Made by a program: the position numbers and the translations under genes. From Bremia lactucae (lineage: Eukaryota > Oomycota > Peronosporomycetes > Peronosporales > Peronosporaceae): a stretch of 64,000 nucleotides of DNA. Location: NCBI RefSeq assembly GCF_004359215.1, contig NW_027152062.1, positions 583,620-647,619 on the forward strand, given 5' to 3'. Below are positions 3,932 through 64,000 of the stretch, in pieces; the stretch's first letter is position 1, and the number at the start of each line of letters is the position of its first letter. The notes below the pieces were generated by a model. The model did not search any database. It had not been told where the DNA came from and was given only the letters and a program-made list of their open reading frames with translations.

Positions 3932-4068
3932 CCCTCCCCCATCAGACTGTTGACACGATGTAATAGGGCACACATCGGTTGGAGAACCCCCCCCCATCAG
4001 ACTGTTGACACGATGTAATGGGGCACACATCGGTTGGAGAACCCTCCCCCATCAGACTGTTGACACCG
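3932..4068. repeat. 55-bp tandem repeats made of LTR end plus inverted polypurine tract
   Basis: Copies of the family 1 LTR start (TGTAATRGGGCACACATCGG) begin at 3959, 4014 and 4069, exactly 55 bp apart. Each of the first two is followed by the reverse complement of the polypurine tract region (CCCCCCATCAGACTGTTGAC), which also occurs at 3932-3958. The unit therefore joins two fragments in opposite orientations and is duplicated head to tail between two inverted LTRs. Confidence 0.9.
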
Positions 4069-4555
4069 TGTAATGGGGCACACATCGATTGGAGAACCGT
4101 TGTTGTGGTACATTTACTTTATAGGTAAAATACCCTTTTATCTTATTTTAAAATAATTAGTTACTTAAATCCCATTTTATTATGGGTAACAAATGTGGTC
4201 GCCGCCAGATATAAATCTGGCGGCCAAAATATATTTTGAATTAGCTAGGGTAAGGTTCCCGGATTTAAATAATTGAAAAAAGCGCAGTCTCCTATTTGAT
4301 CGTAAAACGTTAAGTGCCTCTCTAAGGCTTGCGCATTGATCTGTAAGAGTTAGAAACCTTTCTAAGGTATAATCTCTTGGGCACTAGTTGCCACTTGGTT
4401 CAACGAATCCCTGAATCCCTTAAACTAGGATTCCTTAAGCTCTAATAGCTTGTACGACTCCCTGAGTTGTTAAACCCATTAGTTCAATAGAGCTAAGCAA
4501 CTCTCTGAGTCTGGAAGTCTTCCTGTGAATTTAGGAGCGAGGTAGCCCCGCTACA
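4069..4555 (+). repeat. Family 1 LTR, 5' LTR of element B
   Basis: The segment starts TGTAATGGGGCACAC and ends GTAGCCCCGCTACA (487 bp). A primer-binding-site-like sequence follows two bases after the end. It pairs with the 3' LTR at 9894-10378 and with the inverted LTR at 3447-3931, forming a large palindrome with about 485-bp arms. Confidence 0.92.
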
Positions 4556-7250: not shown

Positions 7251-8600
7251 TCATTTAATGACTATCATGTCGCCCCTTTCTAAATTAATCCGTTCGGCTT
7301 ACACCAAGGATGAACAGTGTGTAGCTCTGCTACGAGCTCTAAAGAACTCTGGTTCAGGTAATAAATTGTCGGCACGTTTGCGTGCAAGGTTACATCGATT
7401 TTCTACCGATAACGACCTGTTGCTTTATTGCACAGACACCGCGGACCCTCCGCGTGTCGTTGTTCCTCATGATTAGGATTTAAAAAACCCGAATCCTCTA
7501 TGAGGCACTAGATACTGTCCTTGGTGGTCATCTAGGTAGAGAAAAGACCTACGGCTCTGTAAGCCAGAGTTATTGGTGGCCCAAACTTTATAAATGGGTC
7601 AGCACATATGTTCGCACATGCGAAACTTGCCAACGGATTAAGCCCTCTGCGCATGCTGCTGCGCCACTGGCGAGCCTTCCCGTCCCCATAGGTTGCTGGG
7701 AGTCCATTAGTATGGATTTTGTTTTCGGTCTACCGAAAATTTCAGCCGGTAACTCCGGCATAGTGGTCTTTGTTGACCGATTGAGCAGAATGGCTCACTT
7801 AGCGGCCGTGCCGGATTCCGCTGATGGTGAAGGTACAGCTAGGCTGTTTATTGATCGCGTGTATCGACAACAGGGTTTGCCAGTGGCAATTGTCTCTGAT
7901 CGGGACCCCCATTTCACGGGTAAATTCTAGAAATCAATTTTTTGAGTGCTTGGCACCAGATTGAAAATGTCCACTGCGGACCATCCGCAGACCGATGGTC
8001 AAACTGAACGTGTCAATCGCGTCATTGAAGACGTTCTACGCAGCGGGTGTGCTCAGACACCAAAGCGCTGGAGATTAATGCTCCGTTAGGAAATAAGTAA
8101 GCGAGTTTCTCGCGACGCGATTTAGTGTCTTAAGACATGTAAGGGATACGATGGATGATAGCCAAGACAACAAAAGGAACAAAGCAGATGCCAAAGGCAG
8201 AAGCTGTATAAACTCTCATATGATCGGAGACCGAGTCTTACTAAACGCTTCAAATCTACCTACCATCTTGGTTTCCGCGGTCTTCAAGACCAAATTGCGC
8301 CCACGCTTTATTGGACCATTTACGGTCGTGGCCAAGAAGGGCCGAGCTTATACGCTTAGCCTTCCTAGCAAGCTGCGTACACCCAGTGTTCTACGTTGGC
8401 TTGCTTAAGCCATATTCGGACCCTTCCCACGTGGACTTAAAGGCGATTGCGTCGAGACAGGCGGTCGTGCCACAGATTACTGCATCCTCGTCAGGTTGTC
8501 CAGCTCGCCCTCTAAACGAGGCTGCTGACGCACCAGCGTTGAAAGACGGTCCCGTACCGTCTCAAAAGAGCTCTCAACCCGAGCAAGGGGCAGGTTGAGA
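7210..8600 (+). pseudogene. Element B integrase, broken
   Basis: From MADALSRRPD the sequence runs through an HHCC zinc domain (frameshift at 7474; TCETCQRIKPS at 7616-7650), the catalytic core (MDFVFGLPK, VSDRDPHFTGKF then a stop at 7928, and DHPQTDGQTERVNRVIED around 7980-8035) and, after a deletion near 8085, the C-terminal SH3-like part (LRPRFIGPFTVV at 8305-8340). The last bit shifts frame to HPVFYVGLLKPYSDP. All three acidic catalytic residues can be found but lie in separate frames. No chromodomain is recognisable after it. Confidence 0.85.
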
Positions 8601-8677
8601 GCTCTTTTGAGACGGTACGGGACCGTCTTTCAACGGCACGAGGTGCAACTTCGTAAGAATTGCACCTCGTGCCGTTG
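8538..8677. repeat. Two nested perfect inverted repeats (42-bp and 18-bp arms)
   Basis: Positions 8538-8579 are the exact reverse complement of 8593-8634 with a 13-bp loop. Positions 8631-8648 are the exact reverse complement of 8660-8677 with an 11-bp loop. The two hairpins share the bases CAAC at 8631-8634. The structure lies just after the integrase end and before the antisense reading frame. Confidence 0.97.
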
Positions 8678-9790
8678 AGCGTCAAATGCTTCCGCCGAAA
8701 TTTCGGCCCCCTCCCGCGCTGCTTGATGCGCGGGGGAACCTTCAGTTTCATGTGGAGAATCTTTTAAAGCGACGTCGTCGTAAGGGTCAATACCAGTTAT
8801 GGTGAAGTGGCTAGGGTACCCCTCTTCTGAAAATCTTGGGAGTTCGAGGTACCTCTTTGGCAAGATTGCCATTACGCCGTTGACGATTTTGAGCGCTAAG
8901 CTCACGGTCAACTCGCGTCAAACGACGCTTCCCACCACTAAACTTGGGATAAGGTGAATCTATAGCCTCAGTGCGTCTTCGATCCATGGTTGTACGGTCA
9001 ACCGAAGCACTGAAATATCGGCTAGGCCTTTCTTCGTTTTGTGGCATAAATGCCGAACGTAACTGGCATTTGGCCTTAAGCTTAGCGAAATCGAAGCGAA
9101 GCTTCCGTTCCAAATGAACATCACCTTTATCCGCAGACTCTGATATTCCAGATATTACGAAGTCGGCGGGCCCGGTGGACCCAATTCTCAAATGAGACTT
9201 CGTTTGCACTACTTGTTTCGTTTGGAAACAAAACGATCGGAATTTCCCTCATGGAGGTCACCGAAGCCCCACGGGCTTGATCACGTAAGCGCGTCAGATA
9301 CTGGCTTCGTGTCATTACCTTTCGCGTAAGGTATTGCTCATGAAGAGCGTCGCGGGCAGCGATCTCCTCCGGCGTCCTCGCCGGGTCACCAGAGATCCAG
9401 ATAGCCAAGCTATGACCCGCTATCTCTTCGAGACGCTCGTCCGCACTAAGCAAAGTGAATCTATATTCACTATGTTCTTTAGCTTTCGCTATCTCGGCAG
9501 CTCGACGACGAGCTCTTTCATCTATGAGGATTATCTGCTCTTGCTCTTCATCGAGCGGATTCGTAATGATGTTGGACTCAGGGTCCCGTGTCCTGCTCAA
9601 TGCAGTTAACATCAGCGGCACCACGTTCTGGGAACGGATTCGCTGCCCGCCGACGTTCATCCGGAGGAGAAGGCGTGAAAAAACGACGCTCTTTCTCCTC
9701 CTCCTCTGATGGAAAGTGACTTTCAAAGTCCACCATTCCCTCATCGTCGAGGAAGGTACTAAGAGTCTGTGACTCACGCTTGATTGTCAT
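8640..9790 (-). pseudogene. Antisense accessory reading frame of family 1 (element B)
   Basis: On the strand opposite to gag-pol, between integrase and the 3' LTR, about 1.15 kb is almost all open but spread over frames: ATG at 9790 (MTIKRESQTL, then an acidic FPSEEEEKERR), a 216-codon frame (9127-9777) with EIAKAKEHSEYRF, a 132-codon frame (8811-9209), and a last frame to 8640. The diverged copy at 17530-17942 keeps the same amino acids (SSFLGDDG against STFLDDEG; CAEECFEEVADRKF against SADERLEEIAGHSL), which favours a real protein. No known domain was recognised. Confidence 0.6.
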
Positions 9791-24559: not shown

Positions 24560-25546
24560 TTATCGCCAGGGTGCTTTAGCATTCTTCGCGGAGTATAATT
24601 CTCCGTGGATATAAACCAGGACGGCTTAATGTCGTCGCTGATGCGCTATCACGCCGACCCGATTTCGAGCCGGCTGCGCATTCCAACACTGGAAATAATC
24701 CCACTGCTGCAACACTCATTTCAAGTGTTCCGTCATCAACCTTGTTTGATGACATAAAGAAAGCCTACGCGGAAGATAAGAACCTTCTGCGTTTTATAGA
24801 TCATCTGATGAAGCCATCCGATTATTTTTTTAAAGATTTACCGGCTTTATATCGATCGTCATCCGATCGATACACAACACGCAACGGCTTATTGTATTAC
24901 ACAGCCGTTGCCGGCGACACTCCACGTGTCGTCGTCCCAATTCACAATGATTTGCGCTTGCGAATCATGTATGAGTGTCACGATGCACCAACAAGTGGCA
25001 TCGAGGACGTGAGAAAACTTACCTCACAGTAAGTCGAGACTTTTACTGGCCCCGCCAGTATCAGTTCGTGCGCAAGTACATTCGTGCTTGCGAGGTATGT
25101 CAACGGGTGAAGCCTAGCCCTTCATCCCGTGCACCTCTTCAACCTCTACCACTTCCGGCAGAGTGTTGGCAGTCCGTATCTATGGACTTCGTCTTCGGAT
25201 TTCCCGAAGACGAACACAAAAACAATGGAATCCTTGTTTTTGTAGACAGATTCAGCAAGATGGTACACCTTGCTGCGGTACCAGAGTCGATTACGGCTCC
25301 GGGTTGTGCCCGTGTCTTTATCGACACGGTATTCAAACTCCATGGGTTACCCCGTGAATTAGTCTCGGATAGAGATCCGAGATTCACGGCGGCGTTCTGG
25401 CAATCCGTGTTCCGATCTCTCGGAACACGGCTGACTATGTCAACATCTGATCACCCGGAAACGGATGGTCAAACAGAACGCGTAAATCGCGTCCTCGAAG
25501 AGATACTTCGAGGTTACGTCCAATCGTATCCGAATTGGAGCGAGTT
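24560..25546 (+). pseudogene. Family 2 Gypsy RNase H end and integrase, first copy (element D1)
   Basis: Starts inside the RNase H C-terminus (FAEYNSPWI.. then RLNVVADALSRRPD at 24620-24665). Integrase follows in two frames: 24742-25032 (ALYRSSSDRYTTRNGLLYYT) and, after a one-base shift near 25003, 24975-25546 with CEVCQRVKPS, the core MDFVFGFPED, LVSDRDPRFTAAFW and DHPETDGQTERVNRVLEE. The three catalytic acidic positions are present. It is cut by the assembly gap at 25547. Everything 5' of RNase H is missing. Confidence 0.85.
25191..25539. other. Array of nine short perfect hairpins inside integrase
   Basis: Stems (left arm / right arm): 25191-25198/25204-25211, 25218-25225/25234-25241, 25254-25259/25269-25274, 25310-25316/25323-25329, 25364-25370/25375-25381, 25405-25415/25420-25430, 25478-25482/25488-25492, 25493-25500/25506-25513 and 25519-25524/25534-25539. 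All arms are exact reverse complements of 5-11 bp with loops of 4-9 bases. They follow one another almost without overlap through protein-coding sequence. Confidence 0.95.
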
Positions 25547-25691
25547 NNNNNNNNNNNNNNNNNNNNNNNNNNNNNNNNNNNNNNNNNNNNNNNNNNNNNN
25601 NNNNNNNNNNNNNNNNNNNNNNNNNNNNNNNNNNNNNNNNNNNNNNNNNNNNNNNNNNNNNNNNNNNNNNNNNNNNNNNNNNNNNNNNNNN
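25547..25691. other. Assembly gap
   Basis: 145 undetermined bases. The sequence after the gap (25692 onward) restarts at the same point in integrase as about 24800 and is nearly identical to 24800-25546 for some 745 bp. Gap size and the tandem order are therefore uncertain. Confidence 0.99.
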
Positions 25692-27123
25692 TGATGGATC
25701 ATTTAATGAATCCATCCGATAAATCTTTTAAAGATCTACCGGCTTTATATCGATCGTCATCCGATCGATACACAACACGTAACGGCTTATTGTATTACAC
25801 AGCCGTTACCGGCGACACCCCACGTGTCGTCGTCCCAACTCACAATGATTTGCGCTTGCGCATCATGTATGAGTGTCACGATGCTCCAACAAGTGGACAT
25901 CGTGGACGTGAGAAGACTTACCTCACAGTAAGTCGCGACTTTTACTGGCCCCGCCAGTATCAGTTCGTGCGCAAGTACATTCGTGCTTGCGAGGTATGTC
26001 AACGGGTGAAGCCTAGCCCTTCATCCCGTGCACCTCTTCAACCTCTACCACTTCCGGCAGAGTGTTGGCAGTCCGTATCTATGGACTTCGCCTTCGGATT
26101 TCCCGAAGACGATCACAAAAACAATGGAATCCTTGTTTTTGTAGACAGATTTAGCAAGATGGTACGTCTTGCTGCAGTACCAGAGTCGATCACGGCTACG
26201 GGCTGCGCCCCTTTCTTTATCGCCATGGTATTCAAACTCCACGGTTTACCCCGCGAACTGGTCTCCGATGAAGACCCACCGTTCACGGCGGAGTTTTGGC
26301 AATCCGTATTTCGATCTCACGGAACACGGCTGACTATAACAACTTCTGATCATCCAGAGAGAGATGGTATGACGGAACGCGTAAATCGCGTTCTCGAAGA
26401 GATATCTCGAGGTTACGTCCACTCGTATCCGAATTGGAGCGATTTTTTACCGATGGTCGAATTCGCCATCAATAATTCGGTGCATGCGTCTACAACGCAT
26501 ACACCGTTCTTCATGAATGGCTTACGCCATCCACGCATACCCACCCAATTAGATAAATTCTCTAGTGTAAGAGGGGGGGGGGGTGACTCGCACGAGTAAA
26601 GCCATTTTTGGCTCATGCTCATCACGCGTCGAAGTTAACAACAACGCGAGTGATGTCGAAGTCAAAAAAAATCGACATCGAAGATGAGAAAGATCTCATG
26701 GCAGTGCGCACAAAGCGTACTGTAAAAGACAAAACAAATGAGTCAGCAGAGAAATTTCTGCTGACTCGAGAATCAGTAATCCGTTTCGTGCAGGATTCCA
26801 TTGCTAACGCAGTGGACCGTCAGAAATGGAACGCAGACAAACATGGAAGAGCAAACGCTTTTTCATTAAAAGTTAATGACCTAGTACTACTCTCTACGGT
26901 AAACTTACCTAAGCGTGTAGTCACTAATGTCGGTAGCAGTAAACTACTACCAAAGTTCATTGGGCCTTTCCGTGTACTGCATCGCAGAGGCAATGCGTAC
27001 AGAATAGAATTGCGACGTAGGATGCGAACGCATCCATCGTTTTACGTTGGTCGGCTCCGCCCGTACCATCAGTACGCTGTTTCTTCCGAGGACGGATCCG
27101 ACACCCTTTTCAAGAATTCCTAA
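25692..27123 (+). pseudogene. Family 2 Gypsy integrase, second copy, with SH3-like C-terminus
   Basis: Repeats the integrase of 24800-25546 and continues: zinc domain (HRGREKTYLTVSRDFYW), core (MDFAFGFPEDDHKNNG, LVSDEDPPFTAEFW, DHPERDGMTERVNRVLEE) and, after a shift near 26590, the C-terminal domain (26608-27123) with LLPKFIGPFRVLHRRGNAYR and HPSFYVGRLRPYHQY. Compared with the first copy, RD in SDRDP became ED and TDGQTE became RDGMTE, so key surroundings are mutated. It leads into a linker and chromodomain. Confidence 0.85.
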
Positions 27124-27707
27124 AAGATTCTTGTGGTCACGAACCAGGTTCTCATACTGAGTCTGATGATTCTCATGTCGGGTCCGAAGATCCTCGAAAC
27201 TGCGATGAGCTGACGACAGCTTATCACGAAGAGCGTGATAATTCCGTTCGTACTCCAACATGGAGTACGCACTCTTCGAACGGCCTCTTAACCGTTCGAT
27301 ATGATGAGCCTGCACCGTCTGCTCTAACGAGCGACGCTTACCGCGCTCGTGATCAAGTCCTCCCTCCAAATCATGGATGAAGTGATCGAGTTTGTCGATT
27401 TTCGACTCTAGATCCGACATGGGTCGGATCTAATTTTCCTTCCTCCGCCACAACCATTGGTGGATTCCCACGGTGATCAACGTTCCTTGTGGAACGCTTT
27501 GAAAATCATTGTGACGTGAAGGGGCAGCGAACGAGTTATCTTGTTCGCTGGCGCGGTTATCCACCTTCACATGACAGCTGGGAGTCTCGTTCCCAGCTGA
27601 TTCTTGACGTTGAGGGCCTCGTCCGTCAGTATGACGAGACCCATCCGATGGATCAGAAGGTCCATCGGAAAACACGCGCCCCTGGCGCGTGTAAATCGAT
27701 TGCATAA
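27124..27707 (+). pseudogene. Integrase linker and chromodomain (element D1)
   Basis: At 27485-27650 the plus strand encodes VERFENHCDVKGQRTSYLVR, then WRGYPPSHDSWESRSQLILD and VEGLVRQYDETHP: the chromodomain fold with its aromatic cage region, found at the integrase C-terminus of chromoviruses and thought to direct insertion to heterochromatin. The linker before it (27124-27480) carries stops. Equivalent remains lie at 40135-40260 and 62100-62230, both on the minus strand. Confidence 0.88.
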
Positions 27708-27860
27708 CGTCAATCGCATCGCGCATCTCGATAGAGATGCGAGCCTTTCCCCAGGGCGAAGAAAGAGAATAGACATCCTCTTTTACTCGCTTCGTGTTGT
27801 CAATACAACACGGACAGGGATCACCCCACGTGAGGCACGCAAGTCCTGCCTCACCTGACA
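27520..27860. other. Array of perfect hairpins through chromodomain and 3' region
   Basis: Exact stems at 27575-27583/27591-27599, 27645-27652/27661-27668, 27672-27680/27684-27692, 27697-27702/27711-27716, 27723-27729/27734-27740, 27793-27800/27805-27812 and 27830-27837/27847-27854. Stem length is 6-9 bp and loops are 3-9 bases. The array crosses the end of the chromodomain into sequence that is antisense coding. Confidence 0.95.
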
Positions 27861-27959
27861 ATTAATGCAATTTAAACCTTCAACCGGTTGGAGTTCGTTT
27901 CTCAAACTTAACGCGACTCGCGTTAAGTCTTTGAAGCCAGGCTTCGAGTCCAATGTCTT

Positions 27960-28700
27960 TTGACATTACGAATGAACGCCCTCCAGGCTTGCATCAACGA
28001 AATTTATCTCGTTTGTTGTTGCCACTTCACTATCGATGCTTGAAAAAAGCATCGAGATATGTCTCTTCCTCAGCGCGAAAGTTCTTCGCGCGGGATCAAG
28101 GCCATGTAGCCATGTCGCAATTACTAAGGGATATTTATTGTAAGGAGTAGTCTCTCCAGACAAGCTATTGATTAGCCGTTCTGGCAAAAGCCATGGCTTC
28201 TTCTCAGGGGCGAGAAGAAACATTTTTTTGTCTTCACTCCCCTGAGTGGTACCCACTGAAGCAGGGGTAACACAAGAACTTTTCTTACGATGGCTTACGC
28301 CATTGTCATCTCCACGCATTGAAATATGTGCGGTTCATGGCACGGGAGATGGTGCTGGCGATGAGAAATCATCCTCATGGTCGGAAACGAAAATGCTGTA
28401 GCGAATGCTACCAGCACGTCTACTCGAATGAGCTCCCTCATTCGAAGGCTCATAGTCAGCCGCCTGACGATGATCAGGCGACTGTTCTGTTCTCCCCGAG
28501 TCGGCCATTTCGTCAAACTCACATTCGTAGTCGTCGCATTCACGTAGTGTATCACCACATGCACCCGCAACATTTAGAGTGCGGGAGAAGATGACACTAC
28601 GGCAGACGGAACGTCTGCCGCAAGAGACAATAATACGTCGCCCGCGGCTACATGAACCGCAGCCGAAGGCGCCGCACTATTTGCATACCGCATGGACTTG
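27960..28700 (-). pseudogene. Antisense accessory frame of family 2 (element D1 copy)
   Basis: Minus-strand frame from 28319 (MRGDDNGVSHRKKSS, then APEKKPWLLPERLINSLSGE and ATWLHGLDP) corresponds to the better copy at 60994-61954, then shifts frame and hits a stop after AFFKHR. The first half, about 28690-28325, contains the shared DEMADSGRTEQSPD and ADYEPSNE. It lies between chromodomain and 3' LTR and is antisense to pol. Broken, but colinear with its relatives. Confidence 0.6.
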
Positions 28701-28799: not shown

Positions 28800-28812
28800 A
28801 AGGGAGGGGTGG
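28800..28812 (+). other. Polypurine tract of element D1
   Basis: AAGGGAGGGGTGG immediately precedes the LTR start TGTAACGGGG at 28813, the usual position for second-strand priming. Confidence 0.8.
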
Positions 28813-29251
28813 TGTAACGGGGTGTATCGTTACATGAAATTAACACTTAGAGGTTGTTAATTAATATATTATCGAAAAGGTAGATAATATTTGGAGACTA
28901 TTACTTTACATGGTAATATTCTAAAAGCTTATCCATTGGTAGATATAGACAATTTTATCTACTTTCTCCGCGGTCTAGTCAGCGCTGGACGCGCGCAAAG
29001 AGAATGACAGTTAAGCCTTTTAGTACATGTTTTGTATTAATTTATAATAAGTTAGTATTAAGTAGATAGACAAGAAGAACTTAATTATATTAATACAGTT
29101 TTCATTTAGCTCTCTTTAAAGGAAGTGTTTTAAAGAGAAGACTTCCTCTGCACGTACTAGTGTACGTGTAGTGACGTGAGGGTACTCGCACTGAGGCAGT
29201 GCGAAGTGGACTTGTACTGAAGCAGTAACAAGTTGGCAGTGCCATGTTACA
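28813..29251 (+). repeat. Family 2 LTR, 3' LTR of element D1
   Basis: Starts TGTAACGGGGTGTATCGTTA and ends GCAGTGCCATGTTACA (439 bp). Similar to 49251-49690 and, inverted, to 43475-43940, 51294-51735 and 60474-60917. Confidence 0.92.
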
Positions 29252-29471
29252 GCTAGAATATATATTGATAAAGCTTTATGCAGGCCAGCTTGAATAGTCT
29301 GCAAAAGACTTCGCAATATATGCATGCTTTCATGATTTCCCTCAATCAGGCGCTCTTGGCTTTTTCTCACCTGTTAAAAACATTACATCTAACCTCGCCA
29401 AACGAAAACACGGTTTCTGATGTATTCAGGGGTACACACCCATTACAATGCCCTCATGTAGATAATTAAGG

Positions 29472-42300: not shown

Positions 42301-43424
42301 CTACTGACCCCGTCTATTTTTTGGCGGTCCGCTTCGCTTTTGCGATTTCGCAACAACGTCGGACCCGCGACCGTTGCCCTTTTTGGCATACGGTTCCAAA
42401 TTACGTTCAGTACCTTTCGGTGCTGGGCGTGGGGCACTACACTCATGAGCATAGTGTCCTAATTTTTGGCAGCGCTGGCATTTCTGCGATCGCTGATTGC
42501 TCGAAAAGCGAGGCCTCTCGCTTTCGACGTAAGAAAGGTCCATGGGGTCTGGACCTCCGAACTCGTGTCGTCTTGGAGGACGATATGATGACGAACTAGC
42601 TTGAGCCTGTCTCAAGCTAAAGTCCTCCTGTTCCGCAACGGATATTGCTTCTTCAAGCGTATCCAGTTCCAAGCGGAACAGGTGGGTCTTTACGGGACCA
42701 TCCGTAAGACCTTGCATGAACACCGTAATCAACGTGTTTTTATGAACTGTGTAGTTTGTGATACAACTCGCTAAGAGTCGTATGTGCCGGGCATAAGCGT
42801 GAACATCACGCTTGCCTTGCTTGAGTTTCAGAAGCTCTGATCGAGCTCTGAACTCAGCCCTAGGCGGTTCAAACGTCTGTTTGAGCCGGGCTTTAAAAGC
42901 ATCTAGCGACCCAAAGACATATGGGTCGCGCAACTTAAGACCCAATGCCCAAGTTTTGGCATGACCTGTTAAATTTGACTGATCAAATACGACTTGCATT
43001 TGCTCGTCGACGATGTGACGAGCCCTTATGGCATCGTCCAACTAGACAAACCATCTTAAGAGGGAGTCTTCTTCGACTCCCCGATGCTTAGAGATGTCAA
43101 TCTTTAAGGTTTCGGGACGACGCGTGTGCGTCATCCCAGGTACAGGGGTATGTACCTGTTATAACCTCAACTTCTGCCTGTTGAGAGCCTTGCTGATTAA
43201 GCAAGGCTACCTTCTCCTTCGCATCGTCAAGTTCATGTTGTATGAGCCTGGCGATGGCTGAATGGAGGGCATCTCTGTCCGAAATCGGACAGCATGGCCA
43301 AGATGGCATCGTTCCCTACGCTCGAACTCATTCGTTCGACCGCACTCCTTTCTATGTCACTTAGAAAGGAGTAGCTATCACGCGAAACGTGATGCGTATT
43401 TCCATTATCATCTAACATGTCCAT
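42301..43424 (-). pseudogene. Family 2 Gypsy gag
   Basis: From ATG 43424 (MDMLDDNGNTHHVSRDSYSF) gag runs with one shift near 43250 and a stop near 43040 into a 246-codon frame (43041-42301) containing the retrotransposon gag core (TGHAKTWALGLKL, FEPPRAEFRARSELLKLKQG) and an intact zinc knuckle CQRCQKLGHYAHEC. This is the best preserved gag in the window. Its 5' LTR is 43475-43940. Confidence 0.85.
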
Positions 43425-46114: not shown

Positions 46115-48622
46115 CGCCCCAGCAAAATGGAATGGCTGAACGAATGAATAGGACACTGACGGAACGTGCAAGGTCGATGCTAAATCACATGCAAGTGGAA
46201 AAGAAGTGGTGGGCTGAAGCTATAAATACAGCTGTATATGTGACCAACCGGGTCACGTGCGCTTCATCCCCGACGAAGACTCCAATTGAGATGTGTTTTG
46301 GCTTGAAGCCAGACATGTCACACATGCGCGTTTTTGGTGCTCAAGGTTACGCACACATTGACAAAGCAAAACGTGCTTAATTGGACAAGAAGGCATTTCG
46401 GTGCATGTTTCTTGGTTATTCACACGAAGTGAAGGGTTATCGTGTCTGGAATTATAATTCAGAAAAACTTGAAGTCACAAGGTCAGTGACATTTCAAGAA
46501 CAGCCACGGACGAAGTATGTACAAGTTGTTGATGACGCACCAGTATCAACTCGTCAGCACGCAAAAATAAATGGCGAAGGAGACGATGATATCAGGGTTC
46601 AATCACCAATTTCTTCGAATCACGATGAAATTGAACCTATGGAGGTTGATCAGACTAACGGTGATCAAATAGTCTCGCCTCCTCAAGAATTAACGTCGTT
46701 GGGTACACGTCTAGAGAATGGACATGAAGATGATATTGCTTTCGATATCGATGACGTGTACATGGAGCCAGCTAATTGAGGATGATATTCAGGCCATTGT
46801 GCCCAGGGAGGGATGGACTAATCTCGATGACAGTCTAGAGACACATTCATCTCGTGTTAGTGGACACAATAACCCTCTCGCAATATCTCCTCCAAGTACA
46901 GACTCACAAGCTTTGGTTCCGGTCGGGATGTCAGATGCTATTGTTTCGTCACGAGGAGATGAACCTGTAGAACGTGCCTCAAAACGATATCGTATTGAAT
47001 ATGATCAAGCTAATGCGGCATTTGAAACCCCATCAACGTACCAAGATGCTGTGAAGTCTCCACAAAGTATGATGTGGAAAGAAGCGATAGAAGCCGAACT
47101 GAAGGCACTAGATAGCAAAAAGACGTGGAGTCCCGTGGACAATTTGTTAAACAAGAAGGTAATTGGAACTAAGTGGGTGTTCGCCATCAAGCGAAATGAA
47201 AATGGTGATGTTGAGCGATATAAGGCTCGGCTTGTGGCATTAGGTTATCGTCAGACCTATGGAATTGATTACTGGCAACATACCGCGAAACACACGAATT
47301 GAATTCATGTTCGCAACCGGAGAATACGTGTCGTGATGGCTATATTCCAATATGATGTCGATACAGCATTTATCAATGGTGTTCTCGAAGAAGAGGTGTT
47401 TCTTAATACACCCGAGGGCGTTAAAATGAAATCGAGTCAAGTGCTGAAGCTAAATCGAAGCCTGTATGGACTTAAACAAGCTGCTGCAACATGGTTTAAG
47501 ACTATTTCAGGCGTTTTCAAGAGCATGGGATTTGTGGCGTGCGTTTCGGATCCGTGTGTATTTGTTCGTCGATTTGACAATTTTTCATGGACTTACGTGA
47601 CGTTATATGTCGATGACATGCTCATTGGTGGCATTTCGTACGACTCAATTAAGCAAGTTGCTGATGAATTGTCTACTAAATTTCAGCTCAAGAGACTGGG
47701 TAAAGTGCGATTTGTTCTGGGCATCGAAGTTGACTACAAGATGGAGGAGAAACGACTCAAGATCTGTCAAAGCGCGTGGATAGCAAGAATGGTTGAAAAA
47801 TTCAATCAAGATAATGCTAGGCCGGTGTATAATCCGGGTATGGAAGACCAGAACATGATAAGTGTGAAGTGATGGACCCAAAAATGAAAAATCGTCCGTA
47901 TCGTTCATTGGTGGGTTCACTTCTCTACGTGGCAACCGGCACAAGACCCGATATTGCATTCGCGGTGTGTCAATTGAGTCGACACTTAGAAAAACCAAGT
48001 GAAGAACATTGGAATGCAGCTATCCGAGTGCTGCGTTATTTAAAGTCAACCGCTATGGATGGAATCTGCTATCGGAGCAAGTCACGCGAACTGCAGTTGA
48101 GTGCATTTAGTGACGCTGATTGGGGCAGTAACAAGGACAAATGACGCTCAACATCAGGTGTGATGGTGATGGTCAACGGATCACCCGTGATTTTTTTTCA
48201 AGTCAAAAATGCAAAACAGTGTGTCGCTAAGCACTGCCGAAGCCGAATATGTGGCTTTATCATTGTGTATACAAGAAGTATTGTGGACTAAATCGCTATT
48301 GCTGGAGATGAAGGTCAAGATTAATGGTCCAGTAATGGTGTACGAGGACAATCAAAGTGTGATTGCTATCGCGAAAAATGAAGGATATCAAAGTCGTGCG
48401 AAGCACATTGATATACGCTATCATTTTGTCCGTGATCAAGTCAAAAACAAGGTAATACAGCTGGAGTATATTAAAACCAAGTTACAGCTCGCTGATTTCC
48501 TGACCAAGACAATTTCGACAACGAAGTTTCAATTTCTCGTGGCCAAGACCAATATTAGAAACTTCTCGTCGAGGAGGAGTGTTGAAGGTGGAACATCAGG
48601 CGACGGTTCGTTGTCGTGCTGA
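46115..48622 (+). pseudogene. Copia 1 pol: integrase end, reverse transcriptase, RNase H
   Basis: Integrase part 46115-46380 (AERMNRTLTERARSMLNHMQ, stop at 46378), integrase C-terminus 46381-46779 (FLGYSHEVKGYRVWNY), reverse transcriptase 46718-47302 (WKEAIEAELKAL, GTKWVFAIKRNENGDVERYK) and 47333-47872 (FQYDVDTAFINGVLEEEV, LYGLKQAAATWF, catalytic LYVDDMLIG), RNase H 47869-48144 (SLVGSLLYVATGTRPDIAFA) and 48209-48622 (SLSTAEAEYVALSLC, YEDNQSVIAIAKN). The catalytic YVDD is intact, but several stops and a small inversion at about 47276-47335 break the frame. Confidence 0.88.
47276..47335 (-). other. Micro-inversion inside Copia 1 reverse transcriptase
   Basis: The minus strand of 47288-47329 encodes TYSPVANMNSIRVF, the conserved Copia reverse transcriptase motif that should appear on the plus strand exactly here, between GIDYW (47270) and IFQYDVDTAF (47342). 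The segment has been flipped in place. Confidence 0.88.
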
Positions 48623-48784: not shown

Positions 48785-49250
48785 CACATGACAGTAAAAC
48801 ATTATACAAATCTACCCAGATTGAGCACCGTGCCTTCCTCAATTGTAGCCACTATCACTGCATAAAGCAAGGGCTAAGTTTAGCTTTCAACATAATCTTT
48901 GATATGCGGGATAGTTCCTGACAATCCGCAAGTTTTTTAAGAAGTTCAGCAAACATTAAATTTGTTAGGATTTAGCCAGGGCACAAGCTTAAAGACGAAC
49001 ATTGTGACATAATAAATTATGAAAATTGCTAAATTCACACCCTTTTTCGTTAAATTGACACCTTTTTTTATTTTGAGTTTGAAGTGCGAGGGAGGCGGCT
49101 GGGGCTAATTATAGCGTAATACGTTGTCTTAATGTATGCAGGAGTTATTGGTCGCATGATTATTCTTAAGGGTGACATGGGGGGTAACAACACCATTGCT
49201 GAGGTAAAGTCGGATAGCCATCATACCAATACTAATCACTTTGCGCTTAC
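48785..49250. other. Unassigned stretch
   Basis: No coding frame or RNA gene recognised between the Copia element and the family 2 LTR. Confidence 0.4.
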
Positions 49251-49690
49251 TGTAACGGGTGTATCGTTACATGAAATTAACACTTAAAGGTTGTTAATTA
49301 ATATATAATCTAAGAGGTAGATAATATTTGGAGAATATTACTATACATGGTAATATTCTAAAGGCTTATCCAATGGTAGATATAGACCATTATATCTACT
49401 TTCTTCGCGGTTCAGTCAGCGCTGGACGCGCGCAAAGAGAAAGACAGATAAGACTTTTAGTACATATTTTGTAAAAGTTTATAATTAAGTTAGTTTTAAG
49501 TAGGTAGACAAGAAGAACTTAATTATATTGATACAGTTTTTAATTAACCCTCTTTAAAGCAAGTGTTTTAAAGAAAAGACTTCTTCTGCACGTACTAGTG
49601 TACGTGAAGTGACGTGAGGCACCACTCGCACTGAGGCAGTGCGAAGTGGACTTGTACTAGAGCAGTACAGGTCTGCAGTAGCCCGTTACA
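49251..49690 (+). repeat. Family 2 LTR, left arm of the palindromic element
   Basis: Starts TGTAACGGGTGTATCGTTAC and ends GTAGCCCGTTACA (440 bp), followed by CCTGGTAGCACTTTGTAGTC, the primer-site-like leader. Confidence 0.92.
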
Positions 49691-49733
49691 CCTGGTAGCA
49701 CTTTGTAGTCCGTCCAAGGACCACAGTTCCAAT

Positions 49734-49890
49734 CATCTAACATGAACATGTTAGATGAAATGAAAATACGCATCACGTTTCGCGTGATAGCTACTCCTTT
49801 CTAAGTGACATAGAAAGGAGTGCGGTCGAACGAATGAGTTCGAGCGTAGGGAACGATGCCATCTTGGCCATGCTGTCCGATTTCGGACAG
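49734..49890. other. Five perfect hairpins at the gag 5' end
   Basis: Exact stems: 49734-49744/49747-49757 (11 bp), 49772-49777/49783-49788, 49793-49802/49812-49821 (10 bp), 49826-49831/49838-49843 and 49873-49880/49883-49890 (8 bp, 2-base loop). The same series is present in the gag copies at 43233-43440 and 51100-51260. They overlap the gag start codons. Confidence 0.95.
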
Positions 49891-49999
49891 AGATGCCCTC
49901 CATTCAGCCATCGCCAAGTCCATACAACATGAACTTGACGAGGCGAAGGAGAAGGTAGCCTTGCTTAATCAGCAAGACTCTCAACACGCAGAAGTTGAG

Positions 50000-51243
50000 G
50001 TGATGAGGGATACCTCATCACCAGGTGCAGAGACACATAATGATTGTGTGTCTGGAGCAACTTTAGTCAAGAGATTTGCAAACTCTCTTGAGGTTGCTGG
50101 ATCAGTAGAGCGTTGCGCCCCTACCGACCCCGACCGTTTTTTGGCAATCCGCCTCTCTGTTGCTATTTCGGAACAACGTCGGATCCGCGACCGTTGCCTT
50201 TTTTTGCATACGGTCCAAAATTACGTTCAGTACCATTCGGTGCTGGGCGTGGGGCACTACACTCATGAGCGTAGTGTCCTAATTTTTGGCAGCGATGGCA
50301 TTTCTGCAATCGCTTATTGCTCCAAAAGCGAGGTTTCTCGCTTTCGACGTAAGAGAGGTCCATGGGTTCTGGATCTCCTAGCTCCTGTCGTCTTGGAGGA
50401 CGATACGATGACGAACTAGCTTGAGCCTGTCTCAAGCTAAAGTCCTCCTGTTCCGCAACGGATATTGCTCCTTCAAGCGTATCCAGTTCCAAGCGCAACA
50501 GGTGGGTCTTTATGGGACTATCCGTAAGACCTTGGATGAACACCGTTATTAACGTGTGTTCATGGACTGGGTTATTTGTAATACAACTCGCTAAGAGTCG
50601 TATGTGCTGGGCATATGCGTGAACATCACGCTTGCCTCGCTTGAGTTTCAGAAGCTCTGAACGAGCTCTGAACTCAGCTCTAGGCGGTTCAAACGTCTGT
50701 TTGAGCCGGGCTTTAGCGACCCAAAGGCATACAAGTCGCGCAACTTAAGGCCCAATGCCCAAGTTTTGGCACGACCTGCCAAATTTGAATGAGCAAATGC
50801 GACTTGCATTTGCTCGTCGATGATGTGACGAGCCCTTATGGCATCGTCCAACTCGACAAACTATCTTCTGAGGGAGTCTTCTTCGACTCCCCTATACTTA
50901 GAGATGTCAATCTTTAAGGTTCCGGGACGACGCGTGTGCGTCATCCTAGGTACAGGGAGGGAGGGGTCTGTACCTGCTCTAACCTCAACAGTTCTGCATG
51001 TTGAGAGCCTTGCTGATTAAGCAAGGCTACCTTCTCCTTCGCCTCGTCAAGTTCATGTTGTATGAACTTGGCGATGGCTGAATGGAGGGCATCTCTGTCC
51101 AAACCGGACAGCATGGCCAAGATGGCACCAATCCCTACGGTCGAACTCATTCGTTTGACCGCACTCCTTTCTATGTCACTTAGAAAGGCGTAGCTATCAC
51201 GCGAAACGTGATGCGTATTTCCATTATCATCTAACATGTTCAT
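50000..51243 (-). pseudogene. Gag of the right arm of the palindromic element
   Basis: From ATG 51243 (MNMLDDNGNTHHVSRDSYAF) through MDDAIRARHIIDEQMQV (50851) and TLEGAISVAEQEDF to the zinc knuckle CHRCQKLGHYAHEC (about 50290). A deletion near 50713 removes about 12 bp (GSLDAFKARL reduced). Ends at the palindrome centre in the gag-protease junction. Confidence 0.85.
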
Positions 51244-51293
51244 GTTAGATGATGGAACTGTGGTCCTTGGACGGACTACAAAGTGCTAACAGA

Positions 51294-51735
51294 TGTAACG
51301 GGGCACTGCCGACTTGTACTGCTTCAGTACAAGTCCACTTCGCATTGCTGCAGTTGTGAGTGGTTCCTCACGTTACTTCACGTATAATAGTACGTTAAGA
51401 GGAAGTCTACTCTTTTAAACACTTCCTTTAAAGAGGGTTAAATGAAAACTGTATTAATATAATTAAGTTCTTCTTGTCTATCTACTTAATACTAACTTAA
51501 TTATAAACTAGTACAAAACATGTACCAAAAGTCTCATCTGTCATTCCCTCTGCGCACGTCCAGCGCTAACTGGACCGCGGAGATAGTAGATATAATGGTC
51601 TATATCTACCAATGGATAAGCTTTTAGAATATTACCATGTAAAGTAATAGTCTCCAGATATTATCTACCTTTTAGATAATATATTAATTAACAACCCTTA
51701 AGTGTTAATTTCATGTAACGATACACCCCGTTACA
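51294..51735 (-). repeat. Family 2 LTR, right arm of the palindromic element
   Basis: Plus-strand sequence TGTAACGGGGCACTGCCGAC to ACACCCCGTTACA (442 bp); reverse complement of 49251-49690 with scattered differences. Confidence 0.92.
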
Positions 51736-51795
51736 CTAGTTATTAACAAGTCGCTCCCATCACGCTACTCTCATAAATACAGAGGTAGATAATCA

Positions 51796-60473: not shown

Positions 60474-60917
60474 TGTAACGGGGCACGACTTCTTGTACTG
60501 CTTCAGTAAAAGTCCACTTCGCACTGCTTCAGTTGCGAGTGGTGCCTTACGTCATTTCACGTACACTAGTACGTGCAGAGGAAGGCTTCTCTTTAAGACA
60601 ATTTACTTACAGAGGGTTAAATGAAACTGTATTAATATAATTAAGTATATCTTCTTTCTATCTGTTAATGCTAACTTAATTATAAACTAATACTAAACAT
60701 GCAATTAAAATCTTATCTGTCTCTCTCTTTGTTTACGTTTACAGCTGATTAGTCTGCGGGATAAATAGATATAATGGCCTATACCTATTTATGGATAAGA
60801 TTTCTGAACATTACTATATAAAGAAATATTCTCCGAATAAAATCTACCTTTTAGATATTATATTTTTACCTAACAACCTTTAAGTATTAATTGCATGTAA
60901 CGATACACCCCGTTACA
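60474..60917 (-). repeat. Family 2 LTR, 3' LTR of element E
   Basis: TGTAACGGGGCACGACTTCT to ACACCCCGTTACA (444 bp). A purine tract (minus strand AAGGGGGGGGTGA, 60918-60930) precedes it, so it is the 3' LTR of the minus-strand element that runs off the right edge. Confidence 0.92.
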
Positions 60918-60993
60918 TCACCCCCCCCTTAAACGACAATCACTCTGACTGTCATTGGATGGAGTGGTCACTATGTGACCACCTAATTCTAAA

Positions 60994-61954
60994 ATGATGT
61001 TGATTGGTCAGAACCATCATTTTAAGTTTCATCGCATGAAGAACAAATTCATGCGGGGTGCTGATAGTGCGGCGCCTTCGGCTGCGATTCGTGCAGCTGC
61101 GGGTGACACACTGTTATCTCTTGCGGCAGACGGAACGTCTGCCGTAGTATCTTTTACTCGCGCAACACTAGATGTTGCGGATGCTTTTGGTGATTCACCA
61201 CGTGGATACGACCCCTCTTTGGAGATCGACTACGAATGCGAGTCGGACGAAATGGCCGACTCGGGGAGAATAGAACAGTCGCCTGATAGACGTCAGGCGG
61301 CTGACTATGAACCTTCGAATGAGAGGGCTCATTCTGATAGACCATTTAATAGTCGATTTGGTTCTGACGATGAGGATGATCCCGCATTGCCCTTTCCGTC
61401 TACCGTACGGTCACCTGCATCTGTTTCTGTAAGGTGATGACGATGGCGTAAGCCATCGTAATAAAAATTCTTGTGGTACCCCTGCTTCAGTGGGTACCAC
61501 TCAGGGGAGTGAAGACAATAAAATGTTTCATCTCGCCCCTGAGAAGAAGCCGTGGCTTTTGCCAGAACGGCTTATCAATAGCTTGTATGGAGAGACTACT
61601 CCTTACAATAAATATCCCTTATTAATTGCGACATGGCTACATGGCCTTGATCCCAGCGCAAAGAACTTTCGCGCTGAGGAAGAGACTTATCTCGATGCTT
61701 TTTTCAAGCATCGATGGTATAGTAGCAACAACAAGCGAGGTAAAGTCTCGCTTATGCAAGCCTGGAGCGCGTTCATTCGCGACATTGGACGCGAAGCCTG
61801 GCTTCAAAAACTTAACGCGAATCGCGTTAAGTTTGAGAAACGAACTCCAACCGGTGCAAAGATAAATTGCATCGGTTGTCACGTGAGGCTGGGCTTCCAT
61901 GCTTCACGTGGGGTGATCCCTGACCGTGTTGCGGTGACAACACGGAGCGAGTGA
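60994..61954 (+). pseudogene. Antisense accessory frame of family 2 (element E copy, best preserved)
   Basis: Plus strand, antisense to element E pol, starting 77 bp from the 3' LTR. ATG 60994 opens 147 codons (RGADSAAPSAAIRAAAGDTL, DEMADSGRIEQSPDRRQAAD, GSDDEDDPALPFPST). After a one-base shift a second 154-codon frame (about 61440-61954) contains APEKKPWLLPERLINSLYGE, ATWLHGLDPSAKNFRAEEET, YLDAFFKHRWYSSNN, SLMQAWSAFIRDIG, EAWLQKLNANRVKFEK and INCIGCHVRLGF. Short, acidic and low-complexity first half, conserved basic-aromatic second half. No known domain recognised; unlike gag, pol or an envelope protein. Confidence 0.65.
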
Positions 61955-62099
61955 AAGAGGATGCCTATTCCCTTTTTTCGCCCTGGGGAAGGGCTTGCAT
62001 CTCTATTGAGATGCGGGATGCGACATTTTGCAATCGATTTGCAGGTGCCAGGGGCGCGTGTTTTTCGATGGGCCTTCTGAACCATCGAATGGGTCTCGT

Positions 62100-62240
62100 C
62101 ATACTGACGGACGATGCCCTCAACGTCAGCAGCCAGCTGGGACGAGGCTCCCAGCTGTCATGTGAAGGTGGATAACCACACCAGCGAACAAATTAACTCG
62201 TTCGCTGCCCCTTCACATCACGGTGATTCTGAATACGTTA
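62100..62240 (-). pseudogene. Chromodomain remnant of element E
   Basis: The minus strand reads RDVKGQRTS, stop, FVRWCGYPPSHDSWEPR and then a shift, the same domain as at 27489-27707. Damaged by one stop and one shift. Confidence 0.75.
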
Positions 62241-63496
62241 GGTAGGTTTACCGTAGAGAGAAGCACTAGATCATTAACTTTAAATGAATGAACATTTGCT
62301 CTTCCATGTTTGTCTGCATTCCGTTTCTGACGGTCCACTGCGTTAGCAATGGAATCCTGTACGAAATGGATTACTGATTCTCGAGTTCAGCAGAAATTCC
62401 TCTGCTGACTCATTTGTTTTGTCTTTTTCAGTACGCTTTGTGCGCACTGCCATGAGATCTTTCTCATCTTCGAATTCGATGTCAAAGAAATCGACATCAC
62501 TCGCGTCGTTGTTAACTTCGACGCGTGATGAGCATGAGCCAGAAACGGTTTTGGTAGTGCGAGTCCACCCCCCCTTAAACTAGAGGATCCCTCTCATTGG
62601 GTGGGAATGCGAGGATGGCGTTAGCCATTCACGAAGAACGGTGTATGCGTTGTTGACGCATGCACCGAAATATTGATGGCGAATTCGACCATCGGTAAAA
62701 ACTCGCTCCAATTCGGACGTAACCTCGAAGTATCTCTTCGAGGAGGCGATTTACGCGTTCTGTTTGACCATCCGTTTCTGGGTGATCGGATGTTGCGATA
62801 GTGAGCCTTGGTCCGAGAGATCGGAACACGGATTGCCAAAACTCCGCCGTGAATCGTGGATCTCTATCCGAGACCAATTTACGGGGTAAACTGTGGAGTT
62901 TGAATACCGTGTTGATAAAGACACGGGCACAACCGAAGCCGTAATCGACTCTGGTACTGCAGCAAGATGTACCATCTTGCAGAATCTGTCAACAAAAACA
63001 AATATTCCATTGATTTTGTGATTGTCTTCGGGAAATCCGAAGACGAAGTCCATAAATACGGACTGCCAATACTCTGTCGGTAGTTGTAGAGGTTGTAGAG
63101 GCGCACGGGACGAAGGGCTAGGCTTCACCCGTTGACAAACCTCGCAAGCACAAATGTACTTGCGCGCGAGCTGATACTGGCGGAGCCAGTAAAAGTCGCG
63201 ACTTACTGTGAGTTAAGTCTTTTCACGTCCACGATGCCCAGTTGGTGGTGCATCGTAACACTCATGCATGATGCGCAAGCGCGAATGATTGGGAGTTGGG
63301 ACGACGACACGTAGAGTGTCGCCGGTAACGGCCGTGTAATTCAATAAGTCGTTGCGTATTGTGTATCGATCGGATGACTATCGATATAAAGCCAGTAAAT
63401 CTTTAAAGGATTTATTGGATGGATTCATTAGATAATTTATTGAACATAGAAGGTCCTTATCTTCTGTATAGGCTTTCTTTATGTCATCAACAAGGT
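62241..63496 (-). pseudogene. Element E integrase
   Basis: Reading from 63496 down: SSDRYTIRNDLLNYTAVTGD, zinc domain HRGREKT and CEVCQRVKPSPSSRAPLQ, core MDFVFGFPEDNHKINGIFVF (63060), a shift near 62880, MVSDRDPRFTAEFWQSVFRS, SDHPETDGQTERVNRLLEE (62877-62720) and a shift near 62715 into the SH3-like region. D-D-E residues are visible. A few shifts and stops only, so this is the youngest-looking integrase in the window. Confidence 0.85.
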
Positions 63497-63988
63497 TTAT
63501 GACGGAACACTCGTAGTGAGTGTTGCAAGAGTGGGATTAATTTCACTGTTAAAGTGCACTGCCGACTCGAAATCGGGTCGGCGTGATAACGCATTAGCGA
63601 CGACATTAAGTCGTCCTGGTTTATATTTGACGGAGAAATTATATTCCACGAAGAAGGATAGCCACCTCGCCATTCTTCGCGAGAGGTGTGGGCTATTTAC
63701 GGCCTTGCGTAATGACGCATGGTCCGTATATACGATGAACGGTCTATCTCCGAGGAGATAGACCCTAAATTTAGCCAATGCGTATTTCATGGCAAGGAGT
63801 TCCTTTTCATGCACTGGGTAATTGCGTTCAGCTGGTTGCAGCTGACGCGATTGGTAACAGACGACGCGCTCCGCGCCATCTGTATCGTATTGCATTAACG
63901 CACAGCCGATTGCGAAATCGCTGGCGTCACAGACCACATGGAATGGTCTGTCTTGATCTGCAATCGCCAAGATGGGCGATTGCATCAA
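63497..63988 (-). pseudogene. Element E RNase H
   Basis: Intact 163-codon frame: QSPILAIADQDRPFHVVCDA, ASDFAIGCALMQYD, YPVHEKELLAMKYALAKFRV, YTDHASLRKAV, ALSRRPDFES. Upstream reverse transcriptase begins at the right edge (63989-64000) and is outside the window. Best preserved RNase H here. Confidence 0.88.
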
Positions 63989-64000
63989 GCTTTGCTTGAT

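What the first reader, a model, noticed from the sequence alone, without database searches (positions are those of the whole stretch)
25191..27860. Gypsy coding sequence is a near-continuous string of short perfect hairpins
In 349 bp of integrase (25191-25539) I count nine consecutive perfect stem-loops (arms 5-11 bp, loops 4-9 bases), almost end to end, and seven more in 280 bp at 27575-27854. With random sequence a perfect 6-bp stem with about ten loop sizes starts at roughly 10 in 4096 positions, so about one would be expected in 350 bp, and an 11-bp stem almost never. Similar runs occur in gag (49734-49890), in family 1 (6433-6450, 6686-6707, 8538-8677) and family 3 (57459-57498), in both translated and antisense-coding DNA. 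I did not notice this density in the DGAT2, RAD17 or Miro exons. Possible causes, all inference: selection for ordered RNA structure along the genomic RNA (as in viruses with genome-scale ordered RNA structure), avoidance of long double-stranded RNA, or quasipalindrome-templated mutation by reverse transcriptase.
Basis: partly seen in the sequence, partly recalled or inferred. Interest (0 to 1): 0.92.

Follow-up and report, generated by a model that had tools for sequence, protein, structure and literature searches.

The report
Jumping genes packed with perfect hairpins
Certain retrotransposon families in what looks like a downy-mildew genome carry short, perfectly matched hairpins along much of their DNA, protein-coding parts included, far beyond chance, and the pattern fits self-templated copying during the element's own replication better than ordinary RNA folding, though the cause is not proven.

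Summary
Perfect stems (arm at least 6, loop 3-12) number 442 in the window against 141 in shuffles; with arms of at least 8, 118 against 9.8. In the sampled loci the excess sits in two Ty3/gypsy lineages; it is absent from host exons and weak or absent in copia, RVT_1 and sister gypsy loci. It survives codon shuffling, is Watson-Crick specific and peaks sharply at loops 3-10: real single-strand hairpins.

It does not look like ordinary RNA-structure selection: G-U is used no more than A-C and both strands are equally over-stable. Private changes erode stems and make none beyond chance; gains among shared changes are modestly raised. Rare template-switch footprints occur: a two-part inverted insertion, a spacer inversion, a hairpin at a deletion junction.

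Best explanation: fold-back templated correction while the element replicates (0.45); main rival, selection for hairpins (0.33). Against templating: arm changes are not one-sided per locus. No report in print found.

The parts
24582..27120 (+). gypsy family A pol remnants (integrase zinc-binding, integrase core, Tf2-1-like SH3) carrying dense perfect hairpins
   Evidence: Pfam; 14, 16 and 5 stems in three frames against 1.6, 3.1 and 1.0 codon-shuffled; list of hairpins
25363..25382 (+). 8-bp stem present in 3 of 15 aligned copies; compared with the 63-kb copy it is completed by an adjacent two-base change, silent by my translation, in the DPRF stretch (some other copies differ at a third base)
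   Evidence: alignments
27433..28676 (-). 3' part of family A with antisense open frames; 27575-27854 holds 9 hairpins, and bin 27001-28000 has the highest arm coverage of the 64 bins (0.31)
   Evidence: the two antisense frames submitted (27433-27861, 27969-28334) had no Pfam match
28812..29254 (+). family A LTR, also hairpin-rich (9 stems in 443 bp); one LTR stem shows paired changes (including T-A to A-T) between the window copy at 49251-49693 and the LTR in L064
41560..43944 (-). related element: gag domain (42304-43041) and LTR, hairpin-rich
   Evidence: Pfam; 10 stems against 1.9 in the gag frame
49248..51738 (.). related element pieces in both orientations: LTR copies 49251-49693 (+) and 51291-51736 (-), gag domain 50166-50744 (-), hairpin-rich
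60474..64000 (-). second family A copy (RNase H domain 63500-64000; integrase and LTR by alignment), hairpin-rich, 82-88% identical to the first
8537..8678 (+). insertion of about 57 nt net: inverted copy of 43 upstream bp followed by inverted copy of 19 downstream bp (arms 43 and 19, loops 13 and 11), absent from the other copies examined: template-switch footprint
   Evidence: three related copies lack it; no other listed place in the genome search matches across it
46715..47869 (+). copia reverse transcriptase, internal control: no hairpin excess
   Evidence: Pfam RVT_2; 1 and 0 stems against about 1

Best explanation
Two lineages of Ty3/gypsy retrotransposons accumulate perfect hairpins while they are active. 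Most likely, when their genome is copied, single-stranded nucleic acid (probably the minus-strand cDNA) folds back on itself at a chance imperfect inverted repeat. One arm is then copied from the other, so the stem becomes perfect and longer; the loop is mostly 3-12 nt. Repeated over many cycles, and filtered by selection on the encoded proteins, this turns coding and non-coding DNA into a chain of short hairpins. After insertion, ordinary mutation erodes them. Shown: the excess, its loop and Watson-Crick specificity, its restriction to some of the element lineages sampled, lack of wobble preference, equal strands, erosion of stems by private changes at the chance rate, and a few template-switch footprints. 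Inferred: that fold-back templating is the general cause, and that it acts on cDNA.
For: Watson-Crick only: 234 stems against 30.5 shuffled (arms of at least 8: 90 against 1.5), while mirror and two wrong-pairing rules are near chance. Enrichment 6-11-fold for loops 3-10, 3.5- and 3.3-fold at loops 11 and 12, lower below 3 (1.8-, 3.6- and 1.9-fold at loops 0, 1 and 2), mixed at 13-16 and 0.9-1.8-fold beyond: the steric signature of a hairpin. Same host, different load: stems of at least 8 bp per kb in stop-free frames of at least 150 codons are 6.42 against 0.36 codon-shuffled in family A (18 frames) and 4.24 against 0.15 in L006/L008 (3 frames), but 0.22 against 0.13 in other gypsy (13), 0.27 against 0.11 in copia (64) and 0.12 against 0.15 in RVT_1 loci (45); rich and poor clades are interleaved and strongly supported branches force at least 2 changes. 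No wobble preference and equal strands. Outgroup-polarised singletons: 0 stem gains against 7.6 expected, 35 losses against 36.3 (arm at least 7); shared derived changes: 7.9 gains against 4.0, 16.5 losses against 20.4. Paired changes: 45 of 59 both-changed pairs still Watson-Crick at 72-82% identity against 39% of null pairs. Footprints: two-part inverted insertion; one 27-nt spacer inversion between L016 and L020, none in copia or RVT_1 alignments; a 19-bp hairpin at a roughly 630-nt deletion junction in L016; adjacent two-base change completing a stem.
Against: If one arm templates the other, multi-base differences should lie in one arm. Raw pairs suggested this, but after collapsing to independent loci it was not significant: arm at least 8, two differences, 25 of 46 against 48 of 122, p = 0.058; arm at least 7, 32 of 75 against 75 of 172, p = 0.61; three differences below null. 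The excess of gains among shared changes depends on the cut-off: 7.9 against 4.0 at arm 7, 5.7 against 3.6 at arm 8, but only 9.0 against 7.3 at arm 6. Only one inverted templated insertion was found among 85 distinct gypsy insertions/deletions, listed as two alignment rows; with a looser cut-off (9 bases) copia had more (23 of 55 against 4 of 85), though its reverse-only control was also high (13), and RVT_1 gave no such indels to compare. The two-part insertion lies in a hairpin-poor family and, like the spacer inversion, appears confined to one copy, so host DNA repair could have made them. Sister gypsy families lack the trait, which a general enzyme property does not explain. Some stems were completed by changes in both arms.
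Confidence: 0.45

Rival explanations
1. Selection keeps local hairpins along the element's RNA or single-stranded cDNA, for packaging, compaction, copying, or protection from the host's small-RNA silencing, much as in RNA viruses with genome-wide ordered structure.
For: Both-changed stem pairs are Watson-Crick more often than null pairs in every identity class: 45 of 59 against 39% (72-82%), 90 of 173 against 37% (62-72%), 38 of 70 against 43% (82-90%), 43 of 63 against 45% (90-97%). They include a T-A to A-T swap in an LTR stem that no wobble intermediate can explain. Folding excess is strong throughout, z -3.9 to -10.4 in 300-nt pieces. Phytophthora makes small RNAs, some matching transposons (PMC3804510, PMC3522703; search listing only).
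Against: No G-U preference on the sense strand (GT 44 against AC 63 at stem ends; for arms of at least 8, 15 against 32, p = 0.019; shared in-stem changes GU 6.5, AC 14.5). Sense is no more stable than antisense. Stem-breaking shared changes are hardly depleted (16.5 against 20.4). Stems are not kept over long divergence: of 20 stems of at least 7 bp in L006 only one has unchanged arms in L008, and at 62-72% identity stem pairs differ as much as null pairs.
Confidence: 0.33
2. A host process acting on chromosomal DNA (template switching at forks, cruciform repair, end joining with fold-back) makes the hairpins after insertion.
For: The insertion at 8537-8678 and the spacer inversion look confined to single copies, and template switching in coding inverted repeats is documented in yeast (PMC8604942, abstract and passages).
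Against: Host exons, copia and RVT_1 elements in the same genome show little or no excess. Private changes in inserted copies destroy stems and do not make them beyond chance: 6 single-change gains against 10.05 expected, 6 against 15.0, 0 against 7.6 in the polarised subset.
Confidence: 0.08
3. Chance, base composition, codon usage or simple repetitiveness produces the stems.
For: None found.
Against: Dinucleotide, codon and codon-plus-dinucleotide shuffles, and mirror and wrong-pair rules, all fall far short.
Confidence: 0.01

Closest known systems
Coding palindromes in mitochondrial genes of Nematomorpha (PMC6649704; abstract and Discussion read)
   Same: Perfect inverted repeats inside conserved protein-coding sequence, scattered and turned over between species; the authors raise a conversion or template-switch origin because nearly all long repeats are perfect.
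   Different: Those are long (up to 284 bp) and in mitochondrial DNA; here they are short (mostly 6-12 bp arms), about 8-23 per kb in family A copies, in nuclear LTR retrotransposons, with eroded versions in old copies.
Template-switch mutations that make and maintain RNA hairpins (PMC8794818, abstract and Discussion read; yeast coding genes PMC8604942, abstract and passages read)
   Same: Arm homogenisation, spacer inversion and inverted insertions are their footprints; one spacer inversion and one inverted insertion were found here.
   Different: Those reports concern individual events in cellular genes; here element families are dense with hairpins and the host genes are not.
Genome-scale ordered RNA structure in RNA viruses (recalled, no paper read; only a search listing)
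   Same: Excess folding energy spread along most of the element.
   Different: Here the pairing is mostly perfect Watson-Crick, both strands are equal and wobble pairs are not preferred.
Yeast Ty3 RNA structure map (PMC11381356, passages read)
   Same: A Ty3/gypsy element with structured stretches spread along its RNA.
   Different: The passages read describe ordinary RNA structure; I saw no report there of dense perfect hairpins.

Membership tests
Ty3/gypsy LTR retrotransposon | Integrase zinc-binding and core domains, RNase H of gypsy type, gag with zinc knuckle | tested here: met
   Pfam Integrase_H2C2, rve, SH3_Tf2-1, Retrotrans_gag, RT_RNaseH
Ty3/gypsy LTR retrotransposon | Long terminal repeats | tested here: met
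   About 443-bp repeats with TGTAAC at or one base from the start, in several copies and both orientations; no complete LTR-to-LTR element was delimited
Genome-scale ordered RNA structure | Folding excess over dinucleotide shuffles along the sequence | tested here: met
Genome-scale ordered RNA structure | Use of G-U pairs on the RNA strand (expected from RNA thermodynamics) | tested here: not met
   GT not above AC: (private in-stem changes alone are even, GU 38 and AC 34)
Template-switch hairpins | Spacer inversion between inverted-repeat arms | tested here: met
   One event, L016/L020, in 452,160 aligned gypsy columns (at least 80% identity, at least 4 differences); none in 879,610 copia or 521,420 RVT_1 columns; reverse-only control 0 in each
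Template-switch hairpins | Multi-base changes confined to one arm | tested here: inconclusive
   Not significant after collapsing to loci
Template-switch hairpins | Insertion of an inverted copy of adjacent sequence | tested here: met
   Window 8537-8678; one event, in a hairpin-poor family
Nematomorph-type coding palindromes | Perfect inverted repeats inside coding sequence with no excess of imperfect ones | tested here: inconclusive
   Perfect stems predominate (268 unique perfect against 139 unique one-mismatch, total at least 7), but imperfect ones are also above shuffles, as expected from erosion
Known structured RNA families | Match to Rfam | tested here: not met
   No match in the window at gathering score

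The most novel reading that the evidence does not exclude
Some retrotransposon lineages carry a hairpin drive: their own copying machinery, folding nascent cDNA back on itself, converts their genome step by step, coding sequence included, into chains of perfect hairpins, so that the proteins evolve under a mutational pressure imposed by single-strand folding.
Probability: 0.38. Interest if true: 0.92.

Novelty: new variant of a known kind. Interest (0 to 1): 0.8.

Why it matters
A protein-coding mobile element with 39-49% of its bases in perfect stems in the densest roughly 300-base stretches, and 20-30% over whole kilobases, shows that single-strand folding can reshape coding DNA on a scale I have not seen reported. 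If templated mutation is the cause, these elements are a natural recorder of fold-back copying by a retroelement polymerase and a source of multi-base and compensatory change that would be misread as RNA-structure conservation. If selection is the cause, they are an unusually structured retrotransposon genome and a good model for why structure pays. Either way, covariation in such sequences must not be taken alone as proof of a functional RNA.

Tried and rejected
One-sided arm changes: raw pairs looked supportive, but after one vote per locus they were not significant; not used as support.

Codon phase of the pairing: 36, 22 and 24 stems in the three phases. A generic simulation on random artificial coding sequences gave near-equal phases under synonymous-only building, p = 0.10; it does not separate the hypotheses.

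Pairwise G-T against A-C counts mix element orientations and were discarded for the wobble test; only oriented sets were used. The A-C excess at stem ends (p = 0.08 for arms of at least 6, 0.019 for at least 8) hints at folding of the minus strand but is weak and was one of several looks.

Conservation of stems: lower one-sided divergence in stems than null (0.176 against 0.324) is about what is expected when one copy is required to keep a perfect stem, so it is not claimed as conservation.

Viral contigs gave no relative. Rfam gave nothing in the window. Other oomycete genomes could not be reached with these tools. A first attempt at the tree failed through a script error and was repeated.

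Dropped before counts: clusters near gaps, stems whose partner region had gaps, near-duplicate alignments, locus L009 in comparisons between copies (same place as the window; it is counted), stretches reading N, and L064 or L045 from some sets because they carry pieces of family A LTR.
Full report
WHAT WAS CLAIMED AND WHETHER IT IS THERE. I counted maximal perfect stems with arms of at least 6 bases and loops of 3-12. The 64-kb window has 442, against 141 in dinucleotide-preserving shuffles done per kilobase (mean of 5); for arms of at least 8 it is 118 against 9.8, and for at least 10 it is 29 against 1.2. They cluster at about 24-29, 41-44, 49-52 and 59-64 kb. Pfam places gypsy integrase, RNase H and gag domains in these stretches. 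The proposed control, shuffling synonymous codons with or without dinucleotides kept, leaves the excess untouched: integrase 14 against 1.6 and 2.0. Five host exons (DGAT2, RAD17, Miro, a methyltransferase, a phosphatase) and two copia frames scatter around control, some above and some below, with no stem of 8 or more.

WHAT KIND OF SIGNAL IT IS. In the four rich stretches (15.4 kb) Watson-Crick stems number 234 against 30.5 shuffled, while mirror repeats (32 against 28) and two false pairing rules (22 against 29, 34 against 26) are near chance. Enrichment is 6- to 11-fold for loops of 3-10, 3.5- and 3.3-fold at 11 and 12, 1.8-, 3.6- and 1.9-fold at 0, 1 and 2 (few sites), mixed at 13-16 (1.2-, 4.3- and 2.4-fold), and 0.9- to 1.8-fold beyond. 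The rise at a loop of three is the physical limit of a hairpin, so folding of one strand is the agent, not repetitiveness. Folding energies of 300-nt pieces lie 3.9 to 10.4 standard deviations below shuffles on the two strands, against -2.4 to +1.6 for host and copia pieces.

WHICH ELEMENTS HAVE IT. In 80 loci from the same genome (L001-L081 without L009), stems of at least 8 bp per kb in stop-free frames of at least 150 codons, observed against codon-shuffled, are: family A 6.42 against 0.36 (18 frames); the L006/L008 lineage 4.24 against 0.15 (3 frames); other gypsy 0.22 against 0.13 (13); copia 0.27 against 0.11 (64); RVT_1 loci, mostly LINE-like by their long domain span (an inference), 0.12 against 0.15 (45) (whole loci). 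Other gypsy and copia thus have a slight excess. A tree of the RNase H region (16 rows) puts each rich lineage next to a poor one; strongly supported branches force at least two changes of state, though the rich/poor threshold is mine, one window row sits at it, and the root is the midpoint. Only the best-scoring places per search were examined (150 of 6202, 2508 and 5625 candidates; 40 of 3441), and of those only the loci cut out, so this is a sample. The host is a peronosporalean oomycete: the nine best DGAT2 hits after the window's own are 72-75% identical, eight of them named Phytophthora, Peronospora or Plasmopara. Size and gypsy content fit the published Bremia lactucae assembly (115 Mb with 24 Mb of gaps, gypsy 58.6% of contig sequence; PMC6570648, passages), but the genome carries no name here.

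WHEN STEMS ARISE AND ARE LOST. In family A, site by site and polarised by the 63-kb copy, singletons (by inference mostly after insertion) made no stem of at least 7 bp (7.6 expected by relocation) and broke 35 (36.3 expected). Changes shared by several copies made 7.9 (4.0 expected) and broke 16.5 (20.4 expected) (242 and 128 sites, fractions because effects are averaged over copies). The gain excess depends on the cut-off: 9.0 against 7.3 at arm 6, 5.7 against 3.6 at arm 8; singletons gave 4.0 against 13.5 and 0 against 4.0. Unpolarised versions agree for private changes: 6 gains against 10.05 expected among single changes (0 against 0.4 for two-base clusters), and 6 against 15.0; shared changes there had the stem in the rarer state 13.2 times against 5.5. 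Thus inserted copies decay, and what gains there are belong to the active phase. Losses are not clearly depleted in the active phase, which weakens purifying selection as the explanation.

PAIRED CHANGES. Comparing copies 72-82% identical, 45 of 59 stem pairs changed on both sides are still Watson-Crick, against 39% of null pairs; the other identity classes show a smaller excess in the same direction (52, 54 and 68% against 37, 43 and 45%) (copies are related, so the events are fewer). An LTR stem differs between the window copy at 49251 and L064 by A-T to G-C and T-A to A-T swaps. Such covariation is usual evidence for a selected structure, but template switching predicts it too (PMC8794818, abstract and Discussion).

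WHICH STRAND. If RNA folding were selected, G-U should be tolerated more than A-C on the sense strand. It is not: inside one-mismatch stems GT 29 against AC 38 independent families; next pair beyond stem ends or inside loops GT 44 against AC 63 (p = 0.08), and for arms of at least 8, 15 against 32 (p = 0.019); shared in-stem changes GU 6.5 against AC 14.5, private ones GU 38 against AC 34. Excess stability is -8.8 kcal per 120 nt in sense and -9.2 in antisense over 181 windows, p = 0.35. The A-C tilt would mean G-T on the minus strand, a hint of folding in first-strand cDNA, no more.

FOOTPRINTS OF FOLD-BACK COPYING. Window 8537-8678 contains an insert, absent from three related copies, made of an inverted copy of 43 upstream bases followed by an inverted copy of 19 downstream bases. 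In the genome search (40 of 966 candidates scored) 39 other places match query bases 1-89, and by my count 32 of these match again from about base 156 after a gap of about 8 bases; none matches across the insert. This family is hairpin-poor, so it shows that the process occurs, not that it built the rich families. L016 and L020 differ by a perfect inversion of the spacer between 9-bp arms, the signature described in yeast genes (PMC8604942, abstract and passages). L016 also has a 19-bp hairpin at the junction of a deletion of about 630 nt. In three of 15 aligned copies an adjacent two-base change, silent by my translation, completes an 8-bp stem in the DPRF stretch. Against this, only one inverted insertion occurs among 85 distinct gypsy insertions/deletions, and multi-base differences are not one-sided once each locus counts once.

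JUDGEMENT. The finding is real and strong. Fold-back templated correction during the element's own replication explains perfection, loop limits, strand equality, indifference to wobble, lack of gains after insertion, and presence in non-coding and coding DNA alike. It does not by itself explain why sister families lack it, and its multi-base signature was not established. Selection for hairpins explains covariation but not the missing wobble preference or the weak depletion of breaking changes. I put 0.45 and 0.33 on these. Full-text searches for a report of dense perfect hairpins in retrotransposons showed none in the rows listed; subscription journals are mostly not in that library.

Noticed in passing
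24582-25546 and 25694-26445: Two integrase segments 91% identical lie one after the other in the same orientation; L018 also shows two such segments (3-1204 and 1206-2716). A tandem or nested partial duplication of pol.
   Followed up: partly
27433-27861, 27969-28334, 28338-28676 (-): Open frames antisense to pol in the 3' part of the gypsy element; the two submitted to Pfam (27433-27861, 27969-28334) had no match.
   Followed up: partly
57459-57498: Isolated perfect hairpin with 13-bp arms and a 14-base loop, outside the dense runs.
   Followed up: no
3931-4098: Three copies of a 55-bp tandem repeat, next to LTR-like repeats at 3447-4555.
   Followed up: no
L013:3485-3527: A 17-bp-arm, 9-base-loop perfect hairpin just past the point where L013 stops matching the related copies.
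   Followed up: partly
L008:1-101 and 314-414: A 101-bp direct repeat (99% identical) inside a hairpin-rich gypsy copy.
   Followed up: no
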